A stretch of DNA of 64,000 nt from Halothiobacillus sp. (GTDB lineage Bacteria; Pseudomonadota; Gammaproteobacteria; Halothiobacillales; Halothiobacillaceae), in contig JAGDVP010000028.1 in NCBI GenBank assembly GCA_023255735.1, forward strand, positions 149,428 through 213,427, in the 5' to 3' direction. Position 1 is the first letter of the stretch; each line of letters opens with the position of its first letter. The notes below the pieces were generated by a model, which saw only the letters and a program-made list of their open reading frames with translations, had not been told where the DNA came from and did no database searches. Position numbers and translations under genes: made by a program. Positions 11,948 through 55,343 of the stretch are shown here, in pieces.

Positions 11948-14079
11948 AAAGTGAAGCCTAGATTTTTTAATTCAATAATCAGGTTGTTGAGATCATGAGC
12001 ATAGCTAGAACTTTCAAAAACGGGATAGGTTCTGTGGCTAAAAATATCTTGAAAGAACTGATCAAGAGACAAATTTAAAGTAGAAACACCATTTTTATTT
12101 ACGAAAACTGTTGCCATTAATGATTTGTCAATTTTAGAAGGTTTAAGCGTTCTAAGTGGCAAATCTGGTGCAATGAAAACCTTGAACCATTCATTATTAA
12201 AAATATGCTTGGTCGAAAATAAAGATACGGCTGTATGGTTATATGGTACGGAAATTTTTTCAAATCTGTTTGATTTGTTATCTGGGCTTCTAAGGCCTGT
12301 ATCTAAACTCGAGAGTAAATCAAATTCGGTGTTGTTTTTAATCGGTGCGTACGGTTCTGGTTTTACTGGTGATAAAACTTGATTAGGCGGTGGGGAAACT
12401 GATAAACCAGAATTATCAGGGGGGGGGATGCTTTGATTAAACTCAAGGGACGATTGAATTGAATTGAGTTTGATTCCATCAAAAGTGAATTTATTAAGGT
12501 AGGTTATATACGCAGCAGTATAACTGTTTTCGGCAAAATGCCAATGTTGGTTCTGATTTTCAAGCGTTGAAATTAAATTGATAATAGGTTCAATGTGGAG
12601 TTTGCTATCAACGGAGCGGCCTGTTAAATCGGCCTCAAAGAGCACAATTTGGCTAATTAAACTATTTGCATCGCGCCAAGCCGGAGAGAGCTGGCCATGT
12701 CGAGTCAGTATATAAGTTAAAAAATCAATCAAGGTGTTTTCGATAAATTCTTTGGCTGGCGCGCTTAAAATGCCACCCGAAATGTGCTTTTCGATAATTT
12801 CTCTTACAAAATTCGAGTAACGTTGTGTAAATTCTTTAGTGTCACGCGTTTTAGCCGGTGAAGTGTTTATAATTTTAGGTAATGCTGTTTTAAATTCAAG
12901 TTGATTGAGATTGTTAGTTAATGTTCTGAAATCTTCATCGCTGCCATTTGAAAAATTATCAATGAAAAATGAAATTTTATTGGCGACTTCATTTAAAACA
13001 GATAAGCTTGTGCTGGTATTTGTGCCGATAGAAGATATCGTAATGAGCGCAGCCCTGGCAGGGTGATCTGGTTGATTCATAAACGAAGGGCATGAAAAAG
13101 CTGTCATTAAAAAAATTGACTGCATTTCAATAACTTTGTTTCTTATAACTGGACTTATGGTGCTTTTGTTAATAATGGCAGATAATAAAGATCCAATTGA
13201 TTCTAAAATATCAAGATCTGTGTTAGAGATTCTTCTATTTGAATGTTCGGGTCTGATTGATTGAATTAAATGCTGATTGAACTGTTTGACAAATTCAGTT
13301 GCAGTCCAGTTCGATTTTTTTAGCATCACATGCCGCTTTGTATTAATGCAGCTGCTAATAAATTCAATAATTTCTGTTGTTGGTATTATGATTGATTCAT
13401 CAAGTTCTTTACTCATTAATTGTTCGTTTTTATCAAGCTCTTTAATTAGCAAATCGGCGTGTGATAATGCATAAGTTTTTTTGGTGCTTTTAATCTCTGC
13501 TATTACACCAAATTGAATTAAACTTTCATTCATTAAAATGTATAATGGTTCGAGCTTGAACAGAAGCTGATTGCCTAAAGACCGGATGACTTGATCCTTT
13601 AGTGGATTTTTAAGTATCTTGCTTGCTTCTAAAAATTTGAGTACCAAAAAGTTTATTGTAAAAAAGCTTTTTGAAAAATGATCAGGGAAATTACTACAAA
13701 GCCAGTTTATTCGTGATTCAAACTGTGCATGCTCTACACCATACAAGGCTTTGGCGTGGGTAATTACATCTTCAATTTGAAGTGCTAAATTCCTATTTCC
13801 AGTTGCCTCTAACCAAGTTATCTCTGGCTCCGTGGCAGGTTTTTCCATTATTGATTTGAAAAAAAACTCTTCAAATTCCTTGTTTTTTTTCTTAATCATC
13901 TCAAGATGATTAAATAATGCTAACTTATCAGCAGGGTTTTCGGTGTGTTCAGCACGCAAAAAAATCTTTTTTTCAATGTCACTGAAAAGGCTTCCTAATG
14001 CACTTTTTAATGCGGATTGAAAAAGTAAGTTAAGATTGTTTTTAATCTCTTGCGGCTTTAAATTGGTTCTATTCATCAT
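11944..14079 (-). CDS. DUF1631 family protein
   Basis: A large (711-residue) cytoplasmic protein without a signal peptide or membrane helix. The N-terminal half is helical with the family pattern ITWLEATGNRNLALQIEDVI near residue 88, and NPLKDQVIRSLGNQLL near 157; a later block EMQSIFLMTAFSCPSFMNQPDHPARAAL near 325 resembles the conserved DUF1631 HPARR region. A Pro/Ser-rich linker lies at about 555-590. DUF1631 proteins are uncharacterised and often occur with PilZ domains. The start is one base past the glgA stop, and the stop overlaps the PilZ gene start, so it is translationally linked to both. The gene is strongly A/T-rich (37 G+C of 120 bases at 12001-12120). Divergence from typical members makes the family call good but not certain. 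Confidence 0.75.
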   Translation of the reverse strand: MMNRTNLKPQEIKNNLNLLFQSALKSALGSLFSDIEKKIFLRAEHTENPADKLALFNHLEMIKKKNKEFEEFFFKSIMEKPATEPEITWLEATGNRNLALQIEDVITHAKALYGVEHAQFESRINWLCSNFPDHFSKSFFTINFLVLKFLEASKILKNPLKDQVIRSLGNQLLFKLEPLYILMNESLIQFGVIAEIKSTKKTYALSHADLLIKELDKNEQLMSKELDESIIIPTTEIIEFISSCINTKRHVMLKKSNWTATEFVKQFNQHLIQSIRPEHSNRRISNTDLDILESIGSLLSAIINKSTISPVIRNKVIEMQSIFLMTAFSCPSFMNQPDHPARAALITISSIGTNTSTSLSVLNEVANKISFFIDNFSNGSDEDFRTLTNNLNQLEFKTALPKIINTSPAKTRDTKEFTQRYSNFVREIIEKHISGGILSAPAKEFIENTLIDFLTYILTRHGQLSPAWRDANSLISQIVLFEADLTGRSVDSKLHIEPIINLISTLENQNQHWHFAENSYTAAYITYLNKFTFDGIKLNSIQSSLEFNQSIPPPDNSGLSVSPPPNQVLSPVKPEPYAPIKNNTEFDLLSSLDTGLRSPDNKSNRFEKISVPYNHTAVSLFSTKHIFNNEWFKVFIAPDLPLRTLKPSKIDKSLMATVFVNKNGVSTLNLSLDQFFQDIFSHRTYPVFESSSYAHDLNNLIIELKNLGFTL

Positions 14080-14080
14080 G

Positions 14081-15523
14081 TCAGTGCTCCTGTAGAAGCG
14101 CTAGATATATTTTTTTGTACTCGCCCGCGCTAACAATCCATTCATGTTGGGTATTCATGCCATTCAATTGAATTTTATTAAAATTTTCTTTGTTTTCATA
14201 CAGGCTAACAAAATAATTAATTGCCCAAATGATTGCGGGTACATCAAGATAATCTATTACTACACCATTTGCTGTTCCAGCCGTAATTGTTTCCTCATTT
14301 GAATGGGTGACGGAATCGGCTAAACCACCCACTCGGTGAACAATGGGTATGGTGCCATACTTTAAGCTGTAGAGCTGGTTGAGTCCGCATGGCTCAAATC
14401 GACTTGGCATAACGAATGCGTCGCCTGCTGCCTCTAATCTATGTGCTAATTTTTCATCGTATCCAATATGAACGGCGATTTTATGGGGATTCTGTGCGGC
14501 TAGTTTATTTAAGGTTTGCTCAAATCTATTTTCTCCCGTGCCGAGAATAGCAAATTGGATATTTTCATCTTTCAAGGCCTCAATTGCTTGAATGAGCAAA
14601 TCAATGCCTTTTTGTTCTACCAATCTGCCAATATGGACAATTAATGGCGTTTTTTCGTTTTCAGGGAGACCTAGGTGCTTTTGGACTCTGGTTTTGGTAA
14701 TATATTTTCCAGCCATATGCTCAGGGGCGTAGTTTTCATCAATCAGGTGATCGGTTGCTGGGTTCCAGTCTTCGCCAATACCATTGAGAATTCCTTTTAA
14801 ATTTTCTCCTTTGTTATTTAGTACACCATCCAAGCCATAACCGTATTCTTTAGTTTTTATCTCTTCCGCATAGGTAGGGCTTACCGTTGTTACGGTATCT
14901 GAAAAAACAATTCCTGATTTCATGAACGACATATTGCCCCAATATTCAAGCGCGTTATCTCGCCATAGACTCCAGGGTAACCCGAGTCTTTCAAAAGTTT
15001 GTCGGTCAAAAACGCCCTGGTAGGCAAGGTTATGAATTGTGAAGATATTTTTAGGTTTGTCGCTCTCAGATAATAACGCGGGAATGAGCCCGGTTTGCCA
15101 ATCATTGGTGTGGATGATATCGGGATGCCAATTTTCATTAAATTCACCGGCTGCCAGTGCAACGACGGCTCGGCAAAATAACCCAAAACGATCTGGGTTA
15201 TCATGCCATGGGTTTTTGTCTGGCCCCATGTAAGGGTTTCCTTTTCTCGCGGAAAAAGTAGGATGATCGACGAGATAGATTTCTAATTTTGAGTTGATTA
15301 ATGTCGTTTTAAAAATTTCTACATTTTGTCCGAGTATTTCGACTTTCCCAATGCTTGATTTGGATGCAATATATTCGTTTTTAAGATCGGCATAATTGGG
15401 TAGTATCACTTTTATATTTATTTCTAGGTTGCTTAATGCTTGTGGCAGTGCACCTGATACATCAGCGAGTCCGCCTGTTTTTATTAGCGGAAACATTTCA
15501 CTTGTCGCAAACAATACGTTCAT
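14081..15523 (-). CDS. glgA: GlgA, glycogen synthase
   Basis: GT5 glycosyltransferase that elongates alpha-1,4-glucan from ADP-glucose. The 480-residue protein shows the N-terminal ADP-glucose-binding KTGGL at residues 15-19, HTNDWQTGLIPALL, and the C-terminal GT-B nucleotide-binding and catalytic block PSRFEPCGLNQLYSLKYG, followed by HRVGGLADSV. It lies 10 bases after glgB and one base before the DUF1631 gene on the minus strand. Its substrate would come from GlgC, encoded in the divergent operon. Base composition is richer in A/T than the housekeeping genes to either side. Confidence 0.96.
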   Translation of the reverse strand: MNVLFATSEMFPLIKTGGLADVSGALPQALSNLEINIKVILPNYADLKNEYIASKSSIGKVEILGQNVEIFKTTLINSKLEIYLVDHPTFSARKGNPYMGPDKNPWHDNPDRFGLFCRAVVALAAGEFNENWHPDIIHTNDWQTGLIPALLSESDKPKNIFTIHNLAYQGVFDRQTFERLGLPWSLWRDNALEYWGNMSFMKSGIVFSDTVTTVSPTYAEEIKTKEYGYGLDGVLNNKGENLKGILNGIGEDWNPATDHLIDENYAPEHMAGKYITKTRVQKHLGLPENEKTPLIVHIGRLVEQKGIDLLIQAIEALKDENIQFAILGTGENRFEQTLNKLAAQNPHKIAVHIGYDEKLAHRLEAAGDAFVMPSRFEPCGLNQLYSLKYGTIPIVHRVGGLADSVTHSNEETITAGTANGVVIDYLDVPAIIWAINYFVSLYENKENFNKIQLNGMNTQHEWIVSAGEYKKIYLALLQEH

Positions 15524-15533
15524 TTTATTTTCC

Positions 15534-17702
15534 TTATTTGTATATTTTTAAGATTATAGCGCTTAAAGGGGGAATGTTGAGCTCTATATAATCATCCTTT
15601 CCACTATCTTCTTTTGATGCTATATGTTTTATGTCGAGATGGGTATCGTTGCCCATGAAGTATTTTGAGTCGGTATTTAGCATTACTTCGAATGCATTAA
15701 ATTGCATTGTTTTTATTTGATAATTTTCTCTTAAAACGGGTGTAAAGTTTAAAATTACAAGGGCTGTTTCTGTTGAGCTTTTTCTGTAATAGCTTATTAC
15801 TGAATTATGTCGGTCGTTGCAATCGCACCATTCAAAGCCTGTGTGGTGAAAATCTTTTTCATGCAGTGTTTTTTCGTTTCTATATAAGTGATTAAGTGCC
15901 TTAGATAAATTACTGATCCCTTGATGTAAAGGGTATTCAAGTACCCACCAATCAAGCGCTTTTTCATTATTCCACTCATTGCCTTGGCCAAACTCACAGC
16001 CCATAAACAGCAATTTTTTACCGGGGTAGGTATATTGATAAGCCAATAATAATCTCAAATTTGCAAATTTTTGCCATTCATTGCCCGGCATTTTATTTAG
16101 TAATGAGCCCTTTCCGTGTACTACTTCATCATGAGAAAAGGGTAATACGAAATTTTCAGTGAAACTATACAATAATCCAAATGTGAGTCGATTATGGTGA
16201 TATTGCCGATTAATTGGGTCTTCTTGAAAGTATTTTAGCGTGTCATTCATCCAGCCCATGTTCCATTTCATGCTAAAACCTAAGCCACCATGTTCAGGCG
16301 GGCTTGAAACTTGTGGCCATGAGGTGGATTCTTCGGCGATGATGAGTGTGCCGGGATTTCTTGTTTGGGTGATTTTATTGAGTGCTCTTAGAAAATCTAT
16401 GGCTTCTAAATTTTCTCGCCCCCCATAAGCATTGGGCAACCAATCGCCATGATCTCTTGAGTAATCTAGATAGAGCATGGATGCCACTGCATCGACCCGT
16501 AATCCATCGAGATGCATTTCTTCTAACCAATACAGCGCGGATGCAATGAGAAAGTTGCTTACTTCTTTGCGTCCATAATTGAAAATCAAGGTTCCCCAGT
16601 CTCTATGCTCCCCGCGACGAGGGTCTTCGTGTTCATAAAGTGCTGTGCCATCGAATTTTGCGAGCGCAAATTCATCTCTTGGAAAGTGGGCGGGTACCCA
16701 ATCAAGTAGAACGCCCAATCCGGCTTGGTGGGCTTGGTCGACAAATGATTTAAATTGCTCCGGTGTGCCGAACCGTGAGGTCGGTGCAAAATAGCCGGTT
16801 GTTTGATACCCCCATGAGCCATCAAACGGGTGCTCCGTAATGGGTAATAACTCAATATGAGTAAAGCCATGCGCAACAACATAGGGAATAAGCTCTTTGG
16901 CAAGTTCTATGTAGGTAGGTAAATTTCCTTTAGTCGTGCGCCATGAGCCTAAATGTACCTCGTAGATATTGGTGGGTGTATGGAGCCAGTCTTGTTGTTT
17001 ACGTTGCACAATCCAATCATGATCGCCCCAGTTAAATGGCGTGCTGGAAACAACGCGTGCCGCGGTATTGGGCCTAAGCTCAAAGCTTTGCCCCACAGGA
17101 TCGGTGCGAACTGACACGGCGAGGGTATCTTTATTTTTTATTTCAAATTTATAGAGATCTCCAGCGGTTAACCCAGGAATAAATAATTCCCAAACACCAT
17201 TACTGATTCGATTGCGCATGGGATGACGCCGCCCATCCCACGAATTAAAATCACCCACGACACTGACTCTGCACGCATTCGGCGCCCATACGGCAAAGCG
17301 TACTCCAGCGACCTCGTCAATCGTATCCTCGTGCGCACCTAACATTTTCCAAAGATTGTAGTGATTACCTTCGGCAAATAAATAAAGATCTAATTCCCCT
17401 AAAAAGGGTTCAAAGCAATACGGGTCAACTATTTCGTAGAGGGATGTATTGGGTAATTCAATTAATAACTTGGGTCGTGCTTGTAAATCTTGGTTTGGAA
17501 ATTCTCCGCCAAAAATTCCCGGGAACCTCGGAAGTGGGGCAAGTTCAATCAAATCACCCAGCACGGTTTCTATCGATACGCGCCTTGCTTGTGGCTGATA
17601 GGTATGAAATCGACACCTTTGCGCCCCTAATGGATGTTTGCCCAGTAACGAAAACGGGTCATGCATTCGAGCTTCAATGATCGCTTGGAAATCTAAAGGC
17701 AT
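15534..17702 (-). CDS. glgB: GlgB, 1,4-alpha-glucan branching enzyme
   Basis: Introduces alpha-1,6 branches into glycogen. The 722-residue protein has an N-terminal N1 module, a CBM48 module ([23 protein letters not shown] near residue 130), a GH13 catalytic barrel and a C-terminal beta domain. Catalytic landmarks are the nucleophile Asp in [17 protein letters not shown], the acid/base Glu in [10 protein letters not shown] and the His-Asp in [16 protein letters not shown]. It is the first gene of the glgB-glgA-DUF1631-PilZ operon; a GGGAAGAA Shine-Dalgarno precedes the ATG. A TATGAT hexamer on the minus strand at 17748-17753 may be part of its promoter. Confidence 0.96.
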
Positions 17703-51676: not shown

Positions 51677-52354
51677 TTACTTTTTGGGATTTATCGCCGT
51701 GCCGCCGCCAAAATTTCCTGATGCGACAAATGCCAGCAATTCTTGCAATTGGGTTTGGGTGCGCTGCCCCATAAAGTAAAACGGTTTGCCATCGGTTGCT
51801 TGGAATACCACGACGGGGATTCCCGCGAGGTTTTCTCCTTGCAGAATGGATAAATTTTCATCCAGTAAGGTTTGGGTGGCGTTGGTGATGTTTTTTACAG
51901 GTTGAATGCCACCGCCGGTATCGTTATCTAAAAAGCCGTAATTGCGCTCACTTTGATGAAATGCGGCCAAGGGGTCGGGCGCTTGAATGATGGCCGCGGC
52001 TTTGCCAATAGAGGTGCCACCGAGCAGTGCTAAGGGTACCCAGCGATATTGAAGATCCGGCTGGGTTTTGCGGATTTTAACTAACGAATCATAAACGTTA
52101 TGGCAATAGGGGCAGTTAGGATCAAAAAAAACATAAATGATTTTGCTGCCCTCACCCTCTTGAATCCAGCGGGAAGCGTTCAAATTGCTCATTAAATGCG
52201 CAGCGGTGACCCGATCGGCATTGGCCGCGAAACACCCGGCGCTGAAAAAGGCGAAAGTAAGTGCGATTAAGCCAAGCTGTCGGGCTTTGTATTTTACGGC
52301 GTGCGTCAAGGATGAAATTAACGCGAGTTTTGCAAAGCGGGTATTTAGATTCAT
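51677..52354 (-). CDS. DsbG/DsbC-like periplasmic thiol:disulfide protein
   Basis: A 225-residue exported protein of the DsbG type. A long n-region leads to a hydrophobic signal core (LGLIALTFAFFSAGCFA), with probable cleavage near residue 43. The thioredoxin-like domain has the active site C81-P-Y-C84 in FFDPNCPYCHN and the cis-Pro region AGIPVVVFQATDGKPFYFMG. It is missing much of the N-terminal dimerisation domain of E. coli DsbC/DsbG. It ends a minus-strand run after a coiled-coil membrane protein and a VWA protein, separated by 32 bases, so it may serve those exported proteins. Confidence 0.82.
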   Translation of the reverse strand: MNLNTRFAKLALISSLTHAVKYKARQLGLIALTFAFFSAGCFAANADRVTAAHLMSNLNASRWIQEGEGSKIIYVFFDPNCPYCHNVYDSLVKIRKTQPDLQYRWVPLALLGGTSIGKAAAIIQAPDPLAAFHQSERNYGFLDNDTGGGIQPVKNITNATQTLLDENLSILQGENLAGIPVVVFQATDGKPFYFMGQRTQTQLQELLAFVASGNFGGGTAINPKK

Positions 52355-52386
52355 AAACTGCCTGCCGGAAATGGTGAAAGGTTAAA

Positions 52387-53565
52387 TTAGGCGGGTTTTT
52401 TACTTAAATCCAGTTCATCGTCATCCAGTGTGGGGAGTTTTTTGGGCTCTGGGAGTGTGGCCGATTGCTGGCGGGCAATTTCTGCATCCAGCAGCGCATC
52501 AATATCATCTAAATCAAGATTGAAGTCGGTGGTGCTCTCAATCGGTTTGGGGAGTTCGATTTCATCCAAATTAATTAACGTTTCAATCATGGGCGGTTTT
52601 GCCGCAGCAATTGCGTTGGCAGCTTGATCAAGGGGGCGGGCGACGGGCGGCGATACGGGCTCTGGTGCCGGTTTTATTGCCTCGGGTTCGATGCGTGCGG
52701 GTGGTTGAGCGCTCAACGCCGCCTCAGATGCCTGATCGACTGGGGGCATCAAGGATTGTGACACCGCGCTCGGGAGCGCATCACTTGGGGTGGTTTCATC
52801 CAAAGCGTCGATAAAAATAATGCCATTGGCCATAGCCTCATCGGCGCTTCGTTTGGCCGCGCTCATATCTAAACCGGCATCGGTTGCCTGCAGATACAGC
52901 AAAGCGCGCAAAATTTGGGGGACTTTGTAATCGGCATCCACGCCGAATTTGCGGCCATATTCGCTGACGATAATGCTCACCGATTTTAACGCTTCGGCTA
53001 ATTGAGCCGATCGCTCACGCTCGGCGTGGAGGCTTGCGGCTAACTCGTGCTGTAATTGCGCCACCGCTTGTGTTTGTGTTTCAGTTGGTGTGGATTCTAG
53101 CGGGGTGGCGGGGCTGCGGAAAATAGCTGCAATTTGATGTAAATCATTGTGCCGTATCGTCATTATTTCACGCGTGGCTTGCCTCAGCCCATCGGGTGAG
53201 GGGGTCAACCAAGGCGCTACCAACTCGCCGATTAAATCAAAACTGCGCTGCTCATAATCGGCTAATTCTTGCTCGGTGAGCGGCTGATCGGGGCGGAGCG
53301 CCGAATAATGTTGATTGAATGTTTCGGTCGCATTCTCGGCTAGGCGGTCGCGTTCATCCAGTAAAAAACGGGCGGCTTTAATGCGCCTTCGACGGAATAT
53401 CATCGCAAGGATGCCCACAATCAAGGCAAACAAAAAAAATACCACCGCCAATTCAGTCGCGAGGATGGCCCAGTTGGGGGTGAAAATACTGCCCTCGTTT
53501 AAGGCGGGCGGGGTGATGGCTGCGCTATGCGCCAACGAAGTGACCGGTGTGGTGGGGGAAGTCAT
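52387..53565 (-). CDS. Membrane-anchored coiled-coil protein, partner of the VWA protein
   Basis: A 392-residue protein I do not recognise as a named family. A transmembrane helix lies at about residues 32-56 (LATELAVVFFLFALIVGILAMIF) followed by RRRRIKAAR, which should hold the rest in the cytoplasm. Residues about 60-240 are helical and rich in Glu, Gln and Ala, with coiled-coil character (QLQHELAASLHAERERSAQLAEALK). The C-terminal third is Pro/Ala-rich and ends in an acidic segment. Its start overlaps the VWA gene stop by four bases, so the two proteins are probably made together. Confidence 0.62.
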   Translation of the reverse strand: MTSPTTPVTSLAHSAAITPPALNEGSIFTPNWAILATELAVVFFLFALIVGILAMIFRRRRIKAARFLLDERDRLAENATETFNQHYSALRPDQPLTEQELADYEQRSFDLIGELVAPWLTPSPDGLRQATREIMTIRHNDLHQIAAIFRSPATPLESTPTETQTQAVAQLQHELAASLHAERERSAQLAEALKSVSIIVSEYGRKFGVDADYKVPQILRALLYLQATDAGLDMSAAKRSADEAMANGIIFIDALDETTPSDALPSAVSQSLMPPVDQASEAALSAQPPARIEPEAIKPAPEPVSPPVARPLDQAANAIAAAKPPMIETLINLDEIELPKPIESTTDFNLDLDDIDALLDAEIARQQSATLPEPKKLPTLDDDELDLSKKPA

Positions 53566-55343
53566 TGCGTTTTCGCCTCGTTAAGCAGTTGGATGGTTTG
53601 GCGACGGGTGGATCTTTTCCACAGCCAAAAGCCAAGCCCAATAAATAAAAATAAAGCGGCATTGATTGATCCGATCAGCCACCAATTGATTTGGGTGCCT
53701 GGGTTACCCTGACCGATTTTGGCCGCCTGCGGGGGCAAGGGGGCGGGCGATACCATTGATGTGGGGGTGAGGCTGAACGGAGCCAATTCAAGCGTGATGG
53801 CACGGTGTGTGGTGAGTGTGGCGTTGAGTGTGGCGTTGAGTGTGCACAAAATGCCATCGGGCGCGGGCGCGGGGATTTGGCTCACGGTTTGGTTGAGCGT
53901 GATGTTTACTGCTGTTGTGGCTGGGCTAACCCCAGCGCAGGTCCATTGTCCTCTAATGTGCGCCGTGCTGGGTTCGATGACGGTGGGGTCTTGGGTGATT
54001 TGAATGGCGCGTGTTTTGGGCGAATCCCCTGCGGCTAGGGGGGCGGCGGCAGCTTGGCTAATTTGAGTGAGTTGAATCGGTGCTTGGGTCGCCATCGCAA
54101 AATTTTGGCGCCAATCGCGTTGAAAGGTAGGGCTAATGGCGGTTGCAACTAGGCTATAAATTCCAGCGGGATCAATCAAATGCAGTTGAAAATTAAAGGC
54201 GCCATCGCCGCCGATGATGTCGGGATCTGCACCTTGGTCATTGAGTTTAATTTTTTGAATCAGTTCTTGATCGCGGCGCTCCTCGATGTTGGCGTTAATC
54301 ACTTGAGTAAGCGCAGGCTGGGTGATGGGCTGATTAAAATTGGTGAGCATCAGTGCGCCATTTATTTGTTCGCCGGGGTAAATCCGGGTTGGGATGGCGC
54401 TCACTTGCAGCTTAAGGTCGGTAATAATGAGCGCGCGGTTATCGGGATCTAGCGCGCCGATAATTTGCCATTGGCCGGCTGGGGGCTGCTCGATTGTAAT
54501 GAGATCACGGCCACCGCTGGCATCCCAATGCCAGCCGGCGAGGGTTTTGCTTTTGGCCTCGTCAACTATTTGGCCTTCGGGTGTTTTAAGACTGGTGGGG
54601 AGATTCGATTGCGCGCGGAAGGCAAGAATTGTCAATTCTTTGACGGATTTATCAACTAGGAATTTGTTGTCTTTGAGCGGCAAACCATCACGGGGCGCTG
54701 CGGCCTCAAAAATTTTCAAAAAAGCGCGTTGCAGCGCATCGGCCGAATCGGCTTCGACAAAAAGCCCCCCGGTATCGGCGGCAATTTTAGCCAACAAAGC
54801 CCGATCGGCATCCTGTGATAGTGCAATGGTGTGCACACGGATATGTTCGGCGCGCAGCTGCGGCAGGATTTTTTCTAGAAGTTCGGCTTGCGCCCGTGCG
54901 TTGATATTTTTATCGGGTGAAATATCGACCATGCCATCGGAAAGCAGCAAAATATTGCGATCTGTGCCCGTGGCCCAGTTTTGCGCCGCTGCGGTTAGGG
55001 CGTGGGGAATATCGGTGAAGGGCTCGTTTGAGCGGATTTTCGCGGCAGTGTCGCGCACCTGCGCTTTAATCGCCGTGCGGGCCGATTGTGTGGGCAACAT
55101 GGGGGTGACTTTGTCGCCAAAAAACCAAATGCCAATTTGTGCCGACGGCGGGAGTAAATCACCCAATAAACGCAGGGCAGGGCGGCGAAGGTTGGTGGGG
55201 TCGGTTTGTTTCATGCTGCCAGAAACATCAATCAATACATGAAGTTCCGGTGGGCTGCTGGCTTGCGCCATCCCCAAAAAACTGCTGCACCCAAACAGGG
55301 TGAGCACGATAAAAAATCGCAGCCGGGCACACAAAACGCGCAT
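53562..55343 (-). CDS. Exported von Willebrand factor A domain protein
   Basis: A 593-residue membrane protein. The start at 55343 gives a signal peptide (LRFFIVLTLFGCSSFLGMAQA) and follows GAAGGTGGA; extension to 55526 would run through the ettA start region and is rejected. The VWA domain (about 33-220) carries the MIDAS motif DVSGSM at 39-44, with TDIPHAL and LLSDGMVD as the other metal-site parts. A long beta-rich middle part precedes one transmembrane helix near the C-terminus (INWWLIGSINAALFLFIGLGFWLWKR), so the VWA domain faces the periplasm. The 3' end overlaps the coiled-coil partner gene (ATGA). It resembles uncharacterised VWA proteins of gammaproteobacteria. Confidence 0.8.
   Translation of the reverse strand: MRVLCARLRFFIVLTLFGCSSFLGMAQASSPPELHVLIDVSGSMKQTDPTNLRRPALRLLGDLLPPSAQIGIWFFGDKVTPMLPTQSARTAIKAQVRDTAAKIRSNEPFTDIPHALTAAAQNWATGTDRNILLLSDGMVDISPDKNINARAQAELLEKILPQLRAEHIRVHTIALSQDADRALLAKIAADTGGLFVEADSADALQRAFLKIFEAAAPRDGLPLKDNKFLVDKSVKELTILAFRAQSNLPTSLKTPEGQIVDEAKSKTLAGWHWDASGGRDLITIEQPPAGQWQIIGALDPDNRALIITDLKLQVSAIPTRIYPGEQINGALMLTNFNQPITQPALTQVINANIEERRDQELIQKIKLNDQGADPDIIGGDGAFNFQLHLIDPAGIYSLVATAISPTFQRDWRQNFAMATQAPIQLTQISQAAAAPLAAGDSPKTRAIQITQDPTVIEPSTAHIRGQWTCAGVSPATTAVNITLNQTVSQIPAPAPDGILCTLNATLNATLTTHRAITLELAPFSLTPTSMVSPAPLPPQAAKIGQGNPGTQINWWLIGSINAALFLFIGLGFWLWKRSTRRQTIQLLNEAKTQ

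What the first reader, a model, noticed from the sequence alone, without database searches (positions are those of the whole stretch)
51677..55343. VWA protein, coiled-coil membrane protein and DsbG-like protein in one run
Seen: an exported VWA protein with an intact MIDAS, membrane-tethered at its C-terminus, overlaps by four bases a protein with one membrane helix and a long cytoplasmic coiled coil; a periplasmic CPYC thiol protein follows. Inference: a transmembrane pair sensing or binding something in the periplasm, with the Dsb protein keeping its thiols correct. I know of no described system with this composition.
Basis: partly seen in the sequence, partly recalled or inferred. Interest (0 to 1): 0.5.

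Follow-up and report, generated by a model that had tools for sequence, protein, structure and literature searches.

The report
Flagellum-linked VWA membrane protein pair
Two neighbouring membrane proteins, one holding a binding domain outside the inner membrane and one trailing a flexible tail inside the cell, are kept together in many flagellated bacteria; in some of them the tail copies short peptides of the flagellar motor that receive steering signals, so the pair probably helps control swimming.

Summary
The three genes are as described: a Halothiobacillus VWA protein with intact MIDAS and C-terminal membrane helix, a four-base-overlapping membrane protein with one N-terminal helix, and a CPYC thiol protein. 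The first two are a conserved pair: such a partner follows the VWA gene directly in 87 of 104 loci, 4 more re-found. The Dsb-like gene is not part of it: among 131 loci it was seen in 10, from 7 Halothiobacillus genomes. Behind the VWA domain lies a TIGR03503-like region, the architecture reported for MotW, a polar motility regulator of Vibrio (PMC8789113). The pair tracks flagella: FliM in 97 of 102 strong carriers against 106 of 268 other genomes (not corrected for phylogeny). Partner tails carry the FliM docking peptide [DE]IDAL[LF] (21 copies in 15 of 92 tails, shuffled mean 0.022), this one included; one family carries FliN-like DPWADALAEQ arrays. Best reading: an envelope-spanning motility regulator whose tail displays switch-complex peptides to hold CheY-P-like receivers or FlhG. 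Binding is inferred; 36 of 44 families show no FliM-like motif even in looser form. New variant of a known kind.

The parts
53562..55343 (-). VWA gene, 593 aa: signal peptide, VWA domain, TIGR03503/MotW-like region, C-terminal TM, short basic tail
54693..55256 (-). VWA domain, about aa 30-217
   Evidence: fold match to VWA structures, e.g. 4fx5 Z 22.6, rmsd 1.7, 189 aligned
55215..55229 (-). MIDAS DVSGS, aa 39-43 (with T110 and D136)
53739..54683 (-). TIGR03503-like (MotW-like) region, about aa 221-535
   Evidence: 112.6 bits, below the cut-off 305.6; BLASTP E 1e-19 to a TIGR03503 protein without VWA domain
53613..53684 (-). C-terminal membrane helix, about aa 554-577
   Evidence: and sequence
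52387..53565 (-). partner gene, 392 aa: one N-terminal TM, cytoplasmic helices, acidic disordered tail
53395..53472 (-). membrane helix of the partner, about aa 32-57
   Evidence: and sequence
52459..52512 (-). helix aa 352-369 in the disordered tail, holding the FliM-like motif DIDALL (aa 354-359, 52489-52506)
51677..52354 (-). DsbG-like CPYC protein without the dimerisation part; seen beside the pair only in Halothiobacillus, so a neighbour rather than a member

Best explanation
A two-protein inner-membrane motility regulator. The exported protein (VWA plus MotW-like Ig region, anchored at its C-terminus) binds or senses something in the periplasm at the flagellar base or cell pole through its MIDAS. 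The adjacent one-helix partner carries this into the cytoplasm by its helical region and a long acidic, disordered tail. In some lineages, this one included, the tail displays the N-terminal docking peptides of the flagellar switch complex (FliM EIDALL; in a few, FliN-like DPWADALAEQ). The most likely action is to hold or compete for a ligand of those peptides, a phosphorylated CheY-like receiver or the number regulator FlhG, and so to tune motor switching or flagellar assembly. Shown: pair conservation, architecture, association with flagellar genes, motif enrichment. Inferred: contact of the pair, binding by the motif, the periplasmic ligand, the phenotype.
For: Pair: a same-strand ORF with an N-proximal membrane helix lies directly downstream in 87 of 104 loci, 4 more re-found, often with 4-base overlap; the next recurrent neighbour cluster spans 17 loci at scattered positions. 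Flagella: FliM in 97 of 102 genomes with a strong hit (E <= 1e-80) against 106 of 268 others; FliM or FlhF in 99 of 102. Two of the three exceptions, G121 and G313, have VWA genes split into two and three ORFs and no FliN found; G228 and G380 of the same family have uninterrupted genes and FliN. Motif: [DE]IDAL[LF] 21 times in 15 of 92 tails; shuffles mean 0.022, max 1; reversed 0; neighbours 3 in 235,264 aa against 28,716 aa of tails. FliM of this genome has the same peptide near its N-terminus, LSQDEIDALLNG. FliN-like repeats: 5 and 6 copies in L078 and L082, with an 11-mer identical to one in the FliN of another family and close to their own FliN. AlphaFold2 puts a helix on the motif in an otherwise disordered tail. 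Literature passages: EIDALL binds CheY-P (PMC9126983, PMC6700473, PMC6946799); FlhG binds the FliM N-terminus (PMC12826062); MotW is a polar motility regulator of similar architecture (PMC8789113). Context: receiver + TPR gene and HATPase gene directly downstream in L050 and L086; CheV 325 bases downstream of the VWA gene in L034, where no partner was found.
Against: The strict FliM motif is in 16 of 91 tails from 5 of 44 families, the loose one in 22 tails from 8; many partners have no long tail. The association with flagella is not corrected for phylogeny, and 106 FliM genomes lack a strong hit. G106 (99% complete) has the pair but no FliM or FlhF; G019 has the pair but no FliM found. The splits in G121 and G313 (560 and 410 contigs) could be sequencing errors. 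Recurrent neighbours are not flagellar as far as I could read them. The FliN pattern was chosen after seeing the tails; scored with BLOSUM62 against FliN N-termini, L037 and L028 do not beat shuffles and L095 barely does. The review passage says that FlhG of monotrichous species binds FliM, not FliN, which fits the FliN-like arrays badly. MotW is HubP-dependent, but no FimV/HubP C-terminal domain was found in G000, G009 or G014. That MotW is of the TIGR03503 type rests on architecture and recalled synteny, not on its sequence.
Confidence: 0.58

Rival explanations
1. The pair is a spatial landmark that positions flagella or other polar machinery, working like magnetosome McaA/McaB: the periplasmic VWA domain recognises an envelope site by its MIDAS and the cytoplasmic parts recruit cargo such as FlhG.
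For: McaA is signal peptide-VWA-TM-cytoplasmic C-terminus with a MIDAS needed for location and function; McaB has one N-terminal TM and its C-terminus inside (passages of PMC9512821). FlhF in 96 of 102 strong carriers. The HubP-like tail of G158 (L193), a genome whose TIGR03503 protein has no VWA domain, itself carries DIDALL repeats.
Against: Homology to McaA or McaB was not tested. The paper's two-hybrid assay saw no McaA-McaB contact. Receiver-domain neighbours (L050, L086, L034) point rather to CheY-like ligands. FlhF and FliM occur together almost everywhere, so co-occurrence does not separate the readings.
Confidence: 0.2
2. An envelope-stress or adhesion receptor not specific to flagella; the flagellar association reflects shared phylogeny, and the DIDALL helix is a general docking motif.
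For: Pair kept in G106 without FliM or FlhF; in 36 of 44 families no FliM-like motif even in loose form; mixed neighbourhoods.
Against: 97/102 against 106/268 for FliM; split VWA genes in two genomes of one family without FliN found; motif enrichment over shuffles and neighbours.
Confidence: 0.17
3. One reading: the pair with a dedicated Dsb protein keeping its thiols.
For: Genes adjacent in Halothiobacillus; a Cys pair in the VWA protein (aa 469, 500).
Against: The Dsb-like gene is not in the loci of the sister genera, which keep the Cys pair, nor in other families. Six homologues outside the family that were checked (L018, L019, L035, L039, L041, L042) have no Cys behind the start of the VWA domain.
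Confidence: 0.05

Closest known systems
MotW (VC2232) of Vibrio cholerae / NCBIfam TIGR03503
   Same: Signal peptide, Ig-like periplasmic region, single C-proximal TM, short basic tail. The window protein matches TIGR03503 and a VWA-less TIGR03503 protein at E 1e-19. MotW is described as HubP-dependent at the pole and affecting tumbling and speed (PMC8789113: abstract, passages, section 14 and part 1 of section 18 seen).
   Different: MotW as described has no VWA domain, and the two VWA-less TIGR03503 genes read here (L122, L123) have no partner gene beside them. The window protein scores 112.6 against a cut-off of 305.6.
McaA/McaB of Magnetospirillum
   Same: Exported MIDAS-VWA protein with C-terminal TM, and a second protein with one N-terminal TM and its C-terminus inside (passages of PMC9512821).
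   Different: Magnetosome positioning; no sequence relation tested; no FliM-like tail in the passages seen.
FliM and FliN N-terminal peptides of the flagellar C-ring
   Same: [DE]IDAL[LF] and DPWADALAEQ-like peptides in disordered segments.
   Different: The tails carry only the peptides, sometimes in arrays, on a membrane protein and not on a C-ring protein.
Bat-type aerotolerance VWA proteins (BatB 3ibs, 4jdu)
   Same: Bacterial VWA fold.
   Different: The matches cover the VWA domain only.
DsbG
   Same: Thioredoxin-type domain with CPYC.
   Different: Below the family cut-off; the N-terminal dimerisation part is not matched; not part of the conserved pair.

Membership tests
TIGR03503 (MotW-type) | NCBIfam curated score of 305.6 bits | tested here: not met
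   112.6 bits; 0 of 92 relatives searched pass; L122 and L123 pass with 423.6 and 416.6
TIGR03503 (MotW-type) | Homologous region in front of a C-terminal TM | tested here: met
TIGR03503 (MotW-type) | HubP-dependent polar localisation and motility role (as reported for MotW) | not testable with these tools
   reported in PMC8789113; no FimV/HubP C-terminal domain found in G000, G009 or G014
VWA domain with MIDAS | DxSxS...T...D | tested here: met
   D39, S41, S43, T110, D136
CheY/FlhG docking peptide of FliM | EIDALL-type peptide, helical, in a disordered segment | tested here: met
CheY/FlhG docking peptide of FliM | Binding to CheY-P or FlhG | not testable with these tools
   needs an experiment or a complex prediction
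McaA/McaB | Sequence homology | not tested
   no McaA or McaB sequence was fetched; architecture compared from passages only
DsbG | NCBIfam cut-off and full-length match including the N-terminal dimerisation part | tested here: not met
   85.3 against 124 bits; profile 99-248 of 251

The most novel reading that the evidence does not exclude
A widespread transmembrane receptor that mimics the flagellar switch: a periplasmic VWA/Ig sensor coupled to a tail displaying FliM- and FliN-type N-terminal peptides, which captures CheY-P (or FlhG) away from the motor in response to an envelope signal. The docking peptide moves between carriers: the partner tail, the VWA protein's own tail (FliN-like in L091; a looser DIDQLL in L071 and L072), or HubP (L193).
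Probability: 0.35. Interest if true: 0.8.

Novelty: new variant of a known kind. Interest (0 to 1): 0.6.

Why it matters
It gives a likely function and a direct test to a conserved pair whose partner has no match above a curated cut-off in the Pfam and NCBIfam libraries and nothing better than E 0.2 in PHROGs, and it links MotW-type motility control to many lineages beyond Vibrio, with an added metal-site VWA domain and a partner. If the tail binds CheY-P or FlhG, flagellar control has an envelope-coupled competitor of the motor's own docking peptides, which would bear on how the envelope feeds into motor switching or flagellar number.

Tried and rejected
Dsb gene as third member: rejected on its distribution. 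Solved structures: phmmer gave none at E 0.01; with the profile and by fold the matches lie mainly on the VWA domain, so nothing is said about the fold of the Ig part. PHROGs: no match better than E 0.04. McaA/McaB homology: not testable, kept as 'works like'. The FtsZl1-VWA membrane-remodelling idea (PMC2875224, part 1 of 5 of the text seen) was not pursued or tested. FimV/HubP tails as control: 11 loci, only the C-terminal 544-547 residues each; L183 was read in a wrong frame; of the other ten only L193 carries the motif. Choosing between CheY-P and FlhG by co-occurrence failed. A partner profile (A3) was searched in 12 genomes, but it missed even the window's own partner in G000, so its silence in G158, G336 and others means nothing. 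Literature: TIGR03503 in 0 papers; VWA/flagella/motility, 20 of 43 listed, none about this pair by title or start of abstract; MotV/MotW/HubP, 5 papers; EIDALL/DIDALL, 20 of 154 listed, unrelated text; HubP/FimV/EIDAL, 12 of 69 listed; VWA with coiled coil, 7 papers. Of PMC6946799, PMC12826062, PMC9126983, PMC6700473, PMC9512821 and PMC12391452 only passages were seen. That VC2233 is dnaQ and VC2234 rnhA is recalled; one search found nothing on it. Rows dropped: one search kept 111 of 132 loci (duplicates and short loci left out) and recovered a profile hit in 104; seven were lost (L036, L081, L088, L103, L104, L109, L130). The 104 include weak hits (L049, L051) and VWA-less proteins (L122-L124). 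Of the 12 loci without a partner, re-found one in L032, L074, L105 and L115; L092 has one 376 bases on; none was seen in L034, L051, L067, L090, L122-L124. Five counted upstream (L030, L043, L047, L049, L110) were not verified and are left out of the 87.
Full report
What is there. The window lies in a Halothiobacillus genome: the nearest searched genomes are of one genus, and of the six named loci most like it five are Halothiobacillus and one is an unnamed proteobacterial MAG. On the minus strand are a 593-aa exported VWA protein, a 392-aa one-helix membrane protein that overlaps it by four bases, and 32 bases further a 225-aa CPYC protein. The MIDAS is intact; its residues are nearly invariant or invariant in 21 homologues, one row lacking the DxSxS. 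AlphaFold2 gives the VWA protein a mean pLDDT of 87, with a VWA domain, a beta-rich region and a C-terminal helix. The partner (mean 71) has helices from aa 30 to 246 and then a disordered acidic tail with a helix at 352-369 and three helical residues near the end.

Conservation. A relative of the VWA protein is present in 47 of 96 genomes searched with the protein, and in 124 of 370 genomes of the class at E <= 1e-20 with a profile, 102 of them at E <= 1e-80. In the 104 loci with a recovered hit, an ORF with an N-proximal membrane helix lies directly downstream in 87 and in 4 more on closer reading. Clustering of neighbours puts the partner first: 45 loci in one cluster and 8 in each of two more, nearly all at position +1 on the same strand; the next cluster spans 17 loci at scattered positions. 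The Dsb-like gene was found by tblastn in 10 of 131 loci, from 7 Halothiobacillus genomes, and in no other genus.

Relation to MotW. The region behind the VWA domain matches TIGR03503 below its cut-off. Two genomes (loci L122, L123) have VWA-less proteins of 502 and 439 aa above that cut-off, lying beside what I read as dnaQ and rnhA; that of L123 matches the window protein at E 1e-19. MotW is described as signal peptide, three Ig-like domains, C-proximal helix and short positive tail, about 50 kDa, HubP-dependent at the pole, with changed tumbling and speed when deleted, and with suppressors that include FliG and VieS (PMC8789113). I infer that MotW is of the TIGR03503 type; the Vibrio sequence was not fetched.

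Link with flagella. Among 370 genomes, FliM is found in 97 of the 102 strong carriers and in 106 of the other 268 (Fisher p 3e-25, not corrected for phylogeny). FlhF is found in 96 of 102, and either one in 99 of 102. Of the three exceptions, G121 and G313 belong to one family; their VWA genes are split into two and three ORFs and FliN was not found in either. A 39-position FliM piece at a contig edge remains in G121. Both assemblies are in several hundred contigs, so errors are possible. G228 and G380 of the same family have FliN and uninterrupted VWA genes. G106 remains an exception; its partner tail has no strict motif. In the window's own family, G011, G015 and G017 lack both FliM and a real VWA homologue (G015 has only a weak generic match). 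G019 has the VWA gene without FliM found at 92% completeness; G025 and G026 likewise at 79% and 64%; G008 (81%) has FliM but no VWA hit.

The tail. The FliM core [DE]IDAL[LF] occurs 21 times in 15 of 92 tails, against a shuffled mean of 0.022 (maximum 1 in 2000 rounds), none in reversed tails, and 3 in 235,264 residues of neighbouring proteins. With re-found partners added and upstream ones left out it is 23 copies in 16 of 91 tails from 5 of 44 families; the looser form is in 22 tails from 8 families. One re-found partner ends LSDEDIDALLSGRKQN. A looser search of this genome gave 13 sites; 10 could be placed in a reading frame, among them FliM and this partner; one unplaced site also spells EIDALL. 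In eight further genomes 37 sites were found, 30 fetched and 25 read; they include FliM N-termini, partner tails and scattered other ORFs. A FliN-like pattern, chosen after seeing the tails, occurs 20 times in VWA and partner tails, none in 239,861 residues of neighbours, shuffled mean 0.285, maximum 3. Scored against FliN N-termini, L078, L082 and L091 beat 40 shuffles each, L095 barely, L037 and L028 not. L078 and L082 hold 5 and 6 copies; the FliN proteins of the same genomes have EEDPWAEAMNEQ and EEDPWSEAMDEQ near their N-termini. In L091 the VWA protein has the long tail and carries the FliN-like repeats; in L071 and L072 it ends with a looser DVDIDQLLEEE.

Reading. EIDALL is the CheY-P site of FliM (passages of PMC9126983, PMC6700473, PMC6946799), and FlhG also binds the FliM N-terminus, though not FliN in monotrichous species (passages of PMC12826062). 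A tail with such peptides on a membrane protein coupled to a periplasmic VWA/Ig protein is best explained as a motility regulator that holds one of these ligands. Receiver-domain genes directly downstream in two families, and CheV in a third, favour CheY-like ligands, weakly. Binding, contact of the pair and phenotype are untested. Most families show no recognisable motif, so docking by these peptides cannot be the whole function.

Third gene. It is a DsbG-like catalytic domain without the dimerisation part. The VWA protein has a Cys pair at aa 469 and 500, kept in the family also where the Dsb-like gene is not adjacent; a disulfide there is plausible, a dedicated Dsb partner is not needed.

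Noticed in passing
L193 (G158, FimV/HubP C-terminal region): A HubP-like acidic tail carries two DPDDIDALL and two looser repeats; nine other FimV/HubP C-terminal regions read do not.
   Followed up: partly
L050:771-4725 and L086:7717-10790: In two families the partner is followed on the same strand by a receiver + TPR protein and a HATPase protein.
   Followed up: partly
window 12001-16000: G+C drops to 0.345-0.386, against 0.42-0.55 in the other 2-kb windows; possibly acquired DNA.
   Followed up: no
G000, G009, G014: No FimV/HubP C-terminal domain (TIGR03504) found in three genomes of the window's family, although FliM is present.
   Followed up: no
L204 and L206 (G313, G121): VWA genes split into several ORFs in two genomes without FliN found; uninterrupted copies exist in the same family.
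   Followed up: partly
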